Positions 32,087-34,414 of a DNA stretch of 64,000 nucleotides are shown one piece after another. The translations under genes were made by a program, and so were the position numbers. The notes under the pieces are model-generated. The model was not told the DNA's origin. It did not search any database and worked only from the letters and a program-made list of their open reading frames with translations. Within the stretch, counting starts at the first letter, position 1; each line of letters starts with the position of its first letter. The stretch is from assembly GCA_026983955.1 (NCBI GenBank), contig JALSTB010000029.1:1-64000 (forward strand), given 5' to 3'. This DNA is from Melioribacteraceae bacterium. Lineage in GTDB: Bacteria; Bacteroidota; Ignavibacteria; Ignavibacteriales; Melioribacteraceae.

Positions 32087-32860
32087 TCAAAAAATAATTG
32101 ACCATAAAATATAGTCAGATATTAAGATAACCGCCGACGCATAAACAAAAGCTTTAATTGTAGAAAGACCCACTCCCTCAGCGCCGCCGCCGGTATGAAA
32201 CCCGATATGACATCCCAAAAGTGCAGTCATTCCACCGAAAACCATCCCTTTGAACATACCGAAAGTAAAATCACCCATAGCAAAAAATCTTTTCACGGAA
32301 AAGAAAAATACGTCAAAAGATATGCCAAGAAAATAGTTGGATACAAGGTAAGCGCCAAAAACAGCAATAACATCGGCGAAAATAATTAATAACGGTAACA
32401 TAACAACAGCGGCAAAAAATCTCGGCATAGCCAAAAATCGAACCGGATTAATTCCCATGGTTTCAAGGGCATCAATTTGTTCGGTTACTTTCATCGAGCC
32501 GATTTCCGCTGCAATTGAGGCTCCAACTCTGCCGGCAATAATTATTCCTGTTAAAACCGGACCGAGTTCGGTAATAATTGCCCTGCTTGTTGCAGTTCCC
32601 AAGAACGACAAAGGTGCAAGCCCTTTTAATTGATAAGCCGCCTGCCAAGCTGCAACAGCACCGGTGAATATTGCAATGATTATTACAAGCGGCAAGGAAT
32701 TAACCCCAATGTGCTCCATTTGACTTAAAACCAATTTCCGCTTTTTCAAAACCGAAGGGGTTTGTTTAATTATTCCAAAGAACAAATTTGCAACTTGACC
32801 CAACTCCTGAAAAAAAGATAACGAAGCCGCACCCAATTTTTCAAAAATGACGGTTATCAT
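32087..32860 (-). CDS. mlaE: MlaE/YrbE-family ABC transporter permease
   Basis: The inner-membrane permease of an Mla-type lipid transporter that moves phospholipids between the membranes. The 257 residues hold about five hydrophobic segments. Family blocks are present: IIIAGRVGASIAAEIGSMKV, TEQIDALETMGINPVRFLAM and the tail ALLGCHIGFHTGGGAEGVG. Its ATPase and MCE partners (mlaF, mlaD) are not in the window. Downstream lies the sugar transferase. Confidence 0.93.
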   Translation of the reverse strand: MITVIFEKLGAASLSFFQELGQVANLFFGIIKQTPSVLKKRKLVLSQMEHIGVNSLPLVIIIAIFTGAVAAWQAAYQLKGLAPLSFLGTATSRAIITELGPVLTGIIIAGRVGASIAAEIGSMKVTEQIDALETMGINPVRFLAMPRFFAAVVMLPLLIIFADVIAVFGAYLVSNYFLGISFDVFFFSVKRFFAMGDFTFGMFKGMVFGGMTALLGCHIGFHTGGGAEGVGLSTIKAFVYASAVILISDYILWSIIF

Positions 32861-33018: not shown

Positions 33019-33048
33019 TTGACTATGTGTACATTTTTTTATTATTTT
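33019..33048 (+). promoter_or_regulatory. candidate promoter of the ilvE leader
   Basis: TTGACT (33019-33024), an 18-base spacer and TATTTT (33043-33048) lie about 47 bases before the leader-peptide ATG. The -35 element is one base off TTGACA. Position and spacing fit the leader/terminator arrangement that follows. The 381-base gap 32861-33241 between mlaE and ilvE is filled by this promoter, the leader peptide and the terminator; the mlaE-side 150 bases show nothing clear. Confidence 0.55.
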
Positions 33049-33094
33049 ATATGACCGAAGCAGTAACTTCGTAAACGGAAAAACGGAAAGATAG

Positions 33095-33202
33095 ATGAAC
33101 TTTTTAGTACAAAATCTCATTTTAATACTATCTCTAATTCTTATTGACGACAGGTTTTCCATATTCAATCCCGGTCGGTTATTCCGCCGGGATTTTTTTT
33201 GA
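33095..33202 (+). CDS. ilvE leader peptide rich in branched-chain codons
   Basis: A 35-codon ORF with a GGAAAG ribosome site 4 bases before its ATG. Codons 4-17 read L V Q N L I L I L S L I L I: six Leu, four Ile and one Val among fourteen. That bias is typical of leader peptides controlling branched-chain amino acid genes by ribosome stalling. The frame continues through the downstream terminator hairpin and stops with TGA directly after its T run. The next gene is branched-chain aminotransferase, which fits. No homology search was possible. A short membrane peptide is the alternative reading. Confidence 0.7.
   Translation: MNFLVQNLILILSLILIDDRFSIFNPGRLFRRDFF
33167..33200 (+). terminator. 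attenuator terminator upstream of ilvE
   Basis: The stem AATCCCGGTCGG/CCGCCGGGATT, with a TTATT loop and a run of eight T, ends 42 bases before the ilvE start. It lies between the ilvE promoter and the gene, so it must be bypassed for expression. One possible antiterminator is TGACCGA at 33052-33058 pairing with TCGGTTA at 33175-33181, but this is weak evidence. Confidence 0.8.
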
Positions 33203-33241
33203 TAAAAAGTTTTTTTCAACCCAAAAAGCAAAGGGGAAGCT

Positions 33242-34312
33242 ATGATTGACATTATTTTTAAGGATGTTGAACAACCAAAAGATGTAAAATTGCCGGACAA
33301 TTTGATTTTCGGACGCACATTTACCGATCATGTGTTCGAAATGGATTATGATGATGCCCTGGGAGGTTGGCACAATCCTACAATCAAAAAGTTTGGCGAT
33401 TTGAAAATGAGCCCCGCAACGATGGTTCTCCACTACGGTCAAGCAATTTTTGAAGGGATGAAAGCTTACAAACAAGATAACGGCAGGATCGCATTATTCC
33501 GCCCCGACGAACATTTTAAAAGATTAAACCGCTCTGCCGACAGAATGTGTGTTCCCTTGATCGATGAAAAATTTTTGTTGGATGCACTGATCGAATTAAT
33601 AAAAATCGATAAAGATTGGATACCGACAAAACCCGGGCACGCTTTGTATATCCGCCCATTGATTTTTGCAACCGACCCGTTTTTAGGTGTTAGAGCATCG
33701 AATAATTATAAATTGATTATTATGCTTAGTCCGGTTGGACCATATTACCCCGAAGGATTCAAACCGGTACCAATTTTGGCCACCGACAAATACGTACGTG
33801 CCGTTCGCAAGGGTGTAGGCGAATGCAAAACCGCCGGGAACTATGCTGCAAGTTTAGCCGCACAACGTGAAGCCATTAAAGAAGGGTACACTCAAGTTCT
33901 CTGGTTGGATGCAATAGAACAAAAATACTTGGAAGAAGTTGGGACAATGAATATCTTCGTACAATTTGAAGATGAAGTTGCAACTCCGCCGCTTACCGGC
34001 AGTATTTTACCCGGTATTACACGCAAATCGGTGTTGCAAATATTAAAAGATTGGAATTACAACGTAAACGAAAGACCGATTGCGCTGCAAGAAGTAATCG
34101 ACCGTTACCACGACGGATCGCTCGTGGAAATTTTCGGTAGCGGAACCGCTGCAGTAATTTCTTCTTTAAGCAAATTGAAATATCACGATACCGTCCTCAC
34201 TTTCAGTGAAGACAAAGCAGGTGAACTGGGAACAAAATTATATAACGAAATTACAGACATCCAATACGGTAGAAAAGAAGACAGATATAATTGGTTGAAA
34301 TACATCGATTAA
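33242..34312 (+). CDS. ilvE: branched-chain amino acid aminotransferase
   Basis: A fold-type IV PLP enzyme making or degrading Leu, Ile and Val with glutamate as partner. The 356 residues correspond to the longer BCAT subgroup. Landmarks are VLHYGQAIFEGMKAYK, ALYIRPLIFATD, the PLP lysine Lys196 in GVGECKTAGNYAASL and EVGTMNIFV. A GGGGAAG-type ribosome site precedes the ATG. A leader peptide and attenuator upstream suggest control by branched-chain amino acid supply. A terminator follows the gene, so it is probably monocistronic. Confidence 0.95.
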   Translation: MIDIIFKDVEQPKDVKLPDNLIFGRTFTDHVFEMDYDDALGGWHNPTIKKFGDLKMSPATMVLHYGQAIFEGMKAYKQDNGRIALFRPDEHFKRLNRSADRMCVPLIDEKFLLDALIELIKIDKDWIPTKPGHALYIRPLIFATDPFLGVRASNNYKLIIMLSPVGPYYPEGFKPVPILATDKYVRAVRKGVGECKTAGNYAASLAAQREAIKEGYTQVLWLDAIEQKYLEEVGTMNIFVQFEDEVATPPLTGSILPGITRKSVLQILKDWNYNVNERPIALQEVIDRYHDGSLVEIFGSGTAAVISSLSKLKYHDTVLTFSEDKAGELGTKLYNEITDIQYGRKEDRYNWLKYID

Positions 34313-34331
34313 AGTAATTCTTGCCTCCTGG

Positions 34332-34364
34332 AAAAGGTCGCTTTTAAGCGGCCTTTTTTATTTT
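34332..34364 (+). terminator. terminator after ilvE
   Basis: The stem GGTCGC/GCGGCC (one G-T pair) has loop TTTTAA and a T-rich tail, 20-50 bases past the ilvE stop. It separates ilvE from the lexA promoter. Confidence 0.85.
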
Positions 34365-34374
34365 AAAATTTCCC

Positions 34375-34414
34375 TTGACAAAGTGTACAAAAGTTCACTA
34401 TATTTGTAGTGAAC
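34375..34414 (+). promoter_or_regulatory. lexA promoter with overlapping palindromic operator (SOS box)
   Basis: TTGACA (34375-34380), an 18-base spacer and TATATT (34399-34404, continuing as TATATTTG) form a near-consensus promoter. Over it lies GTTCACTA-N6-TAGTGAAC (34393-34414), a perfect 8+8 inverted repeat that covers the whole -10 element. Binding there would block RNA polymerase, so this is the natural LexA autorepression site. The binding protein is inferred from position. Confidence 0.8.

What the first reader, a model, noticed from the sequence alone, without database searches (positions are those of the whole stretch)
33019..33242. Leader-peptide attenuator in front of ilvE
Between a promoter-like pair (33019-33048) and ilvE lies a 35-codon ORF with a good ribosome site whose codons 4-17 include 6 Leu, 4 Ile and 1 Val. 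It overlaps a strong terminator ending 42 bases before ilvE. This is the logic of branched-chain amino acid attenuation, described mainly in Proteobacteria and Actinobacteria. Oddly, the ORF reads through the terminator and stops right after its T run, so ribosome position relative to the hairpin may work differently from the classic model, and a convincing antiterminator is not obvious.
Basis: partly seen in the sequence, partly recalled or inferred. Interest (0 to 1): 0.7.

Follow-up and report, generated by a model that had tools for sequence, protein, structure and literature searches.

The report
BCAA-codon leader peptide controlling ilvE
In front of a lone branched-chain aminotransferase gene, in a bacterium that has lost the pathway for making leucine, isoleucine and valine, sits a short gene packed with codons for those amino acids and overlapping a transcription stop signal; relatives keep the codons but not the sequence, so it is a real sensor switch, but its layout differs from the textbook switch and may even respond the opposite way.

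Summary
A 35-codon ORF (33095-33202) with 11 Leu/Ile/Val in codons 4-17 lies before and across an intrinsic terminator (33167-33200) in the ilvE 5' leader. In the same family (Melioribacteraceae, Ignavibacteriota), 28 analysed ilvE leaders with such a terminator are strongly enriched in Ile, Leu and Val codons (8.0 of 12 against 4.1 in shuffles); 39 loci without the terminator are not. Leader sequences are otherwise unrelated. So it is a branched-chain amino acid (BCAA) leader attenuator. (1) The host lacks ilvB, ilvC and ilvD; the terminator sits before ilvE in 26 of 32 ilvC-less relatives but only 6 of 39 ilvC-bearing ones. (2) The relatives' own his and most ilv-operon leaders are classic attenuators by the same test, but the ilvE leaders are not: no antiterminator, last BCAA codon about 18 nt before the stem, stop codon at or inside it. 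This geometry predicts direct ribosome-terminator interference, probably with inverted sign: well-supplied ribosomes run onto the terminator and allow read-through, starved ones lag and transcription ends. The sign is inferred, not shown.

The parts
33019..33048 (+). promoter-like pair TTGACT-18-TATTTT (weak match; probable promoter of leader and ilvE)
   Evidence: same stretch kept in the nearest relative G001. Transcription start not tested.
33085..33090 (+). GGAAAG, possible ribosome-binding site of the leader ORF
   Evidence: read from sequence; not tested
33095..33202 (+). leader ORF, 35 codons plus TGA stop
   Evidence: part before the stem conserved in frame in G001
33104..33145 (+). 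run of control codons 4-17: 6 Leu, 4 Ile, 1 Val; last codon of the run starts 24 nt before the terminator stem
33167..33194 (+). terminator hairpin AATCCCGGTCGG-TTATT-CCGCCGGGATT, -17.4 kcal/mol
33195..33200 (+). T run of the terminator
33242..34312 (+). ilvE, branched-chain amino acid aminotransferase (type II), the controlled gene
32087..32860 (-). divergent MlaE-family lipid ABC permease; shows the terminator is in a 5' leader, not at a gene end

Best explanation
The stretch is a ribosome-mediated transcription attenuator of ilvE that reads the supply of charged Ile-, Leu- and Val-tRNA through a leader peptide. Mechanism judged most likely (inferred): there is no antiterminator; the ribosome itself is the switch. 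When BCAA are plentiful, the leading ribosome crosses the Leu/Ile run quickly, reaches the stem (in the window the ORF runs through it; in others the stop codon lies at or just before it), keeps the hairpin from folding, and RNA polymerase reads through into ilvE. When BCAA are short, the ribosome lags in the run, 24-63 nt before the stem, the hairpin folds and transcription ends. So ilvE would be made only when BCAA suffice for protein synthesis. That suits an organism without de novo BCAA synthesis, in which IlvE feeds catabolism or branched fatty-acid primers. Shown: codon enrichment, terminator, position in the 5' leader, lack of an antiterminator signal, geometry, loss of ilvB/C/D. Inferred: transcription start, translation of the ORF, occlusion, sign, and the role of IlvE. 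My confidence that it is a BCAA leader attenuator of either sign is about 0.9; the value given here is for the whole statement including sign.
For: Codon enrichment only where the terminator is present: 28 loci mean 8.04 of 12 against 4.06 (sd 0.35) in shuffles, Ile z 11.1, Leu 3.5, Val 3.6; 39 loci without terminator 3.82 against 3.94. Upstream gene divergent in the leader loci where it could be seen. Geometry in 24 leaders: last BCAA codon of the run at median 18 nt (4-27) before the stem; stop codon median 1 nt before it, never more than 20, and within 12 nt or inside it in 20 of 24. Classic leaders of the order differ: his stops 23-39 nt before the stem with a strong switch (stall minus at-stop capture 0.48 against 0.02, z 9.6); ilv-operon leaders of G005/G017 25-34 nt. 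ilvE leaders show no gain in antiterminator on stalling (0.091 against 0.094). Precedent: moving a stop codon from 28 to 5 nt before a terminator cut termination from about 90% to under 10% (PMC4824070); a stall motif before the pyrL terminator raised termination (PMC5021804). A simple occlusion model gives more read-through when replete for 20-24 of 24 leaders under all settings tried. Host lacks ilvB/C/D; terminator in 26/32 ilvC-less against 6/39 ilvC-bearing genomes (Fisher 2e-8, not corrected for kinship).
Against: All amino-acid codon-run leaders I know of are switched on by starvation. At least four ilvC-bearing genomes (G004, G017, G018, G072) carry the leader, where shutting ilvE off during starvation would be harmful. 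A few leaders (L004, L013, L018) do show stall-dependent antiterminator pairing, and mean stall capture over all is slightly above shuffles (0.469 against 0.399, z 2.6). Moderate ribosome distances (17-18 nt) gave mixed termination in the published assay, so a ribosome stalled on the last run codons might also block the stem. Without a polymerase pause the ribosome may arrive too late (PMC4824070 says so for the first 100 bp of genes); no pause site was looked for. The ilvC association falls short of significance on independent tree pairs (4.4 same way, 0.1 opposite of 11; p 0.06-0.38). No expression data.
Confidence: 0.5

Rival explanations
1. Conventional sign: starvation stalls the ribosome in the Leu/Ile run, and this prevents the terminator (by weak, locus-specific antiterminator pairing or by the stalled ribosome crowding the stem), so ilvE rises when BCAA run short; IlvE then makes BCAA from branched 2-oxo acids that are taken up or made by reductive carboxylation.
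For: Sign of the known leaders and expected of the his and ilv-operon leaders of the same order. Stall-dependent capture in L004, L013 and L018. Leader also present in ilvC-bearing genomes, where starvation induction makes sense.
Against: No consistent antiterminator although the method finds it in his leaders. Too little room after the run for a region 2: last control codon 18 nt from the stem against 42-64 nt in his leaders. A ribosome at the stop codon would cover the stem when replete.
Confidence: 0.35
2. Chance: AT-rich DNA yields L/I/V-rich ORFs, and the terminator is unrelated to them.
For: ATT, TTA and ATA codons are common in AT-rich DNA; reverse-strand score 5.3 of 12.
Against: 28 loci lie far outside dinucleotide shuffles (8.04 against at most 5.21 in 400), enrichment is specific to I, L, V (and G) and absent in loci without terminator; distance from run to stem is narrow in unrelated leaders.
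Confidence: 0.03
3. A structured RNA (riboswitch, T-box or protein site) in front of the terminator does the sensing and the ORF is incidental.
For: Family f3 and genus g29 have hairpin-plus-terminator elements before ilvE without an L/I/V-rich ORF.
Against: No Rfam match. The window leader folds no better than shuffles. No conserved hairpin among leaders of its own genus, while BCAA codons are kept.
Confidence: 0.06
4. The ORF works in translation: the ribosome reading through the leader reinitiates at ilvE and the terminator is leaky.
For: In L002 and L011 the ORF overlaps the ilvE start (stops at +4 and +20); reinitiation after leader genes has been proposed (PMC4833913).
Against: In most leaders the stop is 20-110 nt before ilvE, and this would not explain the BCAA codons or the terminator.
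Confidence: 0.05

Closest known systems
Classical amino-acid leader attenuators (E. coli trp, his, leu, ilvGMEDA; candidate ilvB leaders of Actinobacteria, PMC1262725)
   Same: short ORF rich in codons of the amino acids concerned, intrinsic terminator before the gene
   Different: here no region 1-2-3-4 switch, control codons and stop codon lie next to or inside the terminator, the controlled gene is ilvE alone, and the host lacks the rest of the pathway
E. coli pyrBI/pyrL attenuator
   Same: leader ORF read into the terminator, no antiterminator; a close ribosome suppresses termination (PMC5021804)
   Different: pyrBI varies polymerase speed with UTP; here the variable would be ribosome speed at Leu/Ile/Val codons
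his and ilv-operon leaders of the same order (this work, L126-L145, L179-L198)
   Same: leader peptides with cognate codons in the same lineage
   Different: they have region 2 pairing with the terminator arm and stops 23-39 nt before the stem; the ilvE leaders do not
tnaC (tryptophanase operon, E. coli; from own knowledge)
   Same: leader peptide of a catabolic gene, induced when the amino acid is plentiful
   Different: tnaC senses free Trp with its nascent peptide and acts on Rho; here a codon run and an intrinsic terminator

Membership tests
classical ribosome-mediated amino-acid attenuator | leader ORF with a run of codons of the pathway's amino acids | tested here: met
classical ribosome-mediated amino-acid attenuator | intrinsic terminator between leader and gene, in the gene's own 5' leader | tested here: met
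classical ribosome-mediated amino-acid attenuator | antiterminator (2:3) formed when the ribosome stalls on control codons | tested here: not met
   24 ilvE leaders: gain 0.091 against 0.094 in shuffles; window leader 0.01; positive control z 9.6
classical ribosome-mediated amino-acid attenuator | stop codon far enough before the stem for the terminator to fold when replete | tested here: not met
   20 of 24 stops within 12 nt of the stem or beyond; window ORF runs through it; his leaders 23-39 nt
classical ribosome-mediated amino-acid attenuator | expression rises on starvation for the amino acid | not testable with these tools
   needs reporter or RNA-seq
pyrBI-type ribosome-occlusion attenuator | leader ORF extends to or through the terminator, without antiterminator | tested here: met
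   window ORF ends after the T run; 11 of 24 stops inside or beyond the stem start, 20 of 24 within 12 nt of it or beyond; no antiterminator signal
pyrBI-type ribosome-occlusion attenuator | polymerase pausing set by UTP level at U tracts of the leader | not tested
   the sensed quantity here would be aminoacyl-tRNA; pause sites not examined
T-box or other Rfam leader family | match to a covariance model | tested here: not met
   no match in the window apart from three tRNAs; none in related leaders

The most novel reading that the evidence does not exclude
A codon-run attenuator of inverted sign: a run of BCAA codons close before a terminator lets read-through happen only when aminoacyl-tRNA is plentiful, so that a single remaining BCAA gene is induced by sufficiency; it recurs at ilvE in lineages that lost BCAA synthesis.
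Probability: 0.45. Interest if true: 0.75.

Novelty: new variant of a known kind. Interest (0 to 1): 0.58.

Why it matters
It carries codon-based attenuation into Ignavibacteriota with statistics instead of one example, shows that the order also uses classic his and ilv-operon leaders as an internal control, and points to a leader design without an antiterminator whose sign may be opposite to all textbook cases. If the sign is inverted, the same sensor (ribosome speed on cognate codons) would serve catabolic as well as biosynthetic genes, and the placing of run, stop codon and stem would set the sign, which can be tested directly by moving a stop codon.

Tried and rejected
Rfam search: only three tRNAs in the window, nothing in related leaders. 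Single-sequence folding of the leader: no excess stability. Window-specific antiterminator by eye (GACGACAGG with CCCGGTCG): not kept in the nearest relative. Fixed long-range pairing of the 5' UTR with the terminator arm (AGTCGG in three related g2 leaders): no covariation, not general. The alignment shows G003 on the wrong strand; only G000 against G001 is used from it. The 2-oxo acid dehydrogenase E1 of the host could not be told apart as pyruvate or branched-chain type, so the catabolic role stays inferred. Papers on BCAA auxotrophy in the group: hydrophobic amino acid pathways reported missing in two Ignavibacteriales of an anammox community (PMC5460018), nothing on attenuation. The Ignavibacterium album genome paper was not held.

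Full report
What is there. The ORF (33095-33202) has 11 L/I/V among codons 4-17 and ends just after the T run. The upstream gene is a divergent MlaE permease, so this is a 5' leader and not the end of another + strand gene. The window lies in genome G000 of a family that the named relatives identify as Melioribacteraceae (Ignavibacteriota).

Conservation. I fetched the ilvE upstream regions of 58 relatives, 65 named loci and all further members of the family. Of 71 family loci with enough upstream sequence, 32 have an intrinsic terminator within 170 nt of ilvE. In 28 of them (four loci of one genus with another element left out) the best ORF before the terminator holds on average 8.04 L/I/V per 12 codons against 4.06 in dinucleotide shuffles (sd 0.35, highest of 400 shuffles 5.21). 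By residue: Ile z 11.1, Leu 3.5, Val 3.6, Gly 4.0, Asn 2.6, all others 1.5 or less. The 39 loci without terminator show nothing (3.82 against 3.94). Examples: MNFLIQNLILILVLPLIIIVNR..., MKKILEINIIILGLIVIII*, MTFNIINILLIIV*, MSGINLYIILNILGIIMTFSDF*. Outside the BCAA codons the leaders do not align, which is the signature of a leader peptide. In the nearest relative the BCAA part is in frame while the terminator loop carries a frameshift.

Attenuation elsewhere in the order. hisG leaders have His-rich ORFs such as MKNFNNTYHHHHHSNALGVRR*, with a GCCGG or GTCGG stretch after the run that can pair with the terminator arm CCGGC or CCGAC. Seventeen ilvD-first operons have leaders such as ...IILLGIIILSLLGILLTVIG* followed by GGTCAATCCC / GGGATTGACC stems; that stem has changes on both sides in 6 of 11 pairs and no shuffle of 500 reached the observed covariation score. 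Two genomes have two tandem BCAA leaders, each with its own terminator, before the ilv operon. None of those searched matches Rfam.

The host. G000 (98% complete) has no acetolactate synthase (best 58.9 bits against a cut-off of 538), no ilvC (27.6 against 226), no ilvD and no hisG. In the family, the ilvE terminator is present in 26 of 32 ilvC-less and 6 of 39 ilvC-bearing genomes (Fisher 2e-8; with L/I/V of at least 7: 21 of 32 and 4 of 39, 1.2e-6). Both traits change about 13 times on the IlvE tree; in 11 independent supported pairs the terminator follows ilvC loss in 4.4 and opposes it in 0.1 (sign test 0.06-0.38). The link is therefore strong in counts but not proven free of kinship.

Mechanism. 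I modelled capture of the terminator's 5' arm by upstream RNA before the 3' arm is made, with a ribosome footprint (17 nt behind to 12 nt ahead of the first A-site base) placed on each control codon. His leaders behave classically: stalled 0.65, at stop 0.17, difference 0.48 against 0.02 in shuffles, z 9.6. Three of the four tandem ilv-operon leaders also lean that way, two of them strongly. The ilvE leaders as a set do not: gain on stalling 0.091 against 0.094; the window leader gains 0.01. A few single loci (L004, L013, L018) do.

Geometry. In 24 ilvE leaders the first BCAA codon of the run is 59 nt (median) and the last 18 nt before the stem (4-27); the stop codon is 1 nt (median) before it, never more than 20, often inside or beyond. 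In his leaders stops are 23-39 nt and the last His codon 42-64 nt before the stem; in the tandem ilv leaders 25-34 and 33-43 nt. Measured in E. coli, terminators close behind a stop codon are suppressed by the ribosome and recover beyond about 27-30 nt (PMC4824070), and a stall motif before the pyrL terminator raises termination (PMC5021804). By these rules his leaders terminate when replete, while ilvE leaders should be read through when replete and terminate when the ribosome lags. A simple kinetic model with the occlusion rule gives that sign in 20-24 of 24 leaders for all settings tried. This is a consequence of the assumed rule, not proof of it.

Physiology. With no de novo pathway, IlvE can only interconvert imported BCAA and their 2-oxo acids. 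Making it only when BCAA suffice is sensible if it serves catabolism or branched fatty-acid primers (inference). In the ilvC-bearing genomes that also have the leader (G004, G017, G018, G072) the inverted sign would be awkward, which is why I give the conventional sign 0.35.

Verdict. Real BCAA leader attenuator (about 0.9), new to this lineage as far as I could find. It works like a pyrBI-type occlusion attenuator more than a trp/his-type one and fails two tested defining features of the latter, so I do not file it as a classical attenuator. The sign is open (inverted about 0.5). From memory and not checked here: attenuation in Bacteroidetes/Chlorobi was predicted for some amino acid operons in 2004 (Vitreschak et al.), so the phylum-level presence of attenuation may not be new.

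Noticed in passing
L126, L128, L129, L131-L133, L136-L138, L140, L145 (about 100-200 nt upstream of hisG): Classic histidine attenuators (His-rich leader peptide, region 2 pairing with the terminator arm) in Ignavibacteriales; those searched have no Rfam match.
   Followed up: yes
L179-L196 (upstream of ilvD): Conserved BCAA leader peptide ending ...LGIIII..LVG* followed by a covarying GGTCAATCCC/GGGATTGACC stem in 17 ilvD-first operons; no Rfam match in those searched and no obvious U-tract terminator, so it may act on translation.
   Followed up: partly
L197 and L198 (upstream of the ilv operon, G017 and G005): Two tandem Ile/Leu/Val leader peptides, each with its own terminator; the first of each has a clear antiterminator (GGAATGG with CCATTCC).
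   Followed up: partly
L038, L041, L043, L049, L091, L098, L103, L104, L106 (upstream of ilvE, mostly family f3): Hairpin GATTCATTAAG-(C-rich loop)-CTTAATGAATC (L106: ATCAGG/CCTGAT, compensatory) just before terminator GCCCGGTAGCCCTCCACCGGGC, with no consistent BCAA enrichment of a leader ORF; loop CTACC could pair with GGTAG of the terminator. Candidate structured RNA regulator of ilvE.
   Followed up: no
L034, L087, L233, L234 (upstream of ilvE, genus g29): Another hairpin before the terminator, with varying stem (AACAATCC/GGATTGTT, AACAGTC/GACTGTT) and conserved loop TTGTCGAAG.GGG.
   Followed up: no
window 34330-34360: GGTCGCTTTTAAGCGGCC followed by T6 soon after ilvE looks like its 3' terminator, so ilvE is probably transcribed alone; a LexA-like repressor gene follows at 34409. 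Read by eye, not scored.
   Followed up: no
G000 (host genome): No hisG, ilvB, ilvC or ilvD in a 98% complete genome: probably auxotrophic for histidine and branched-chain amino acids.
   Followed up: partly
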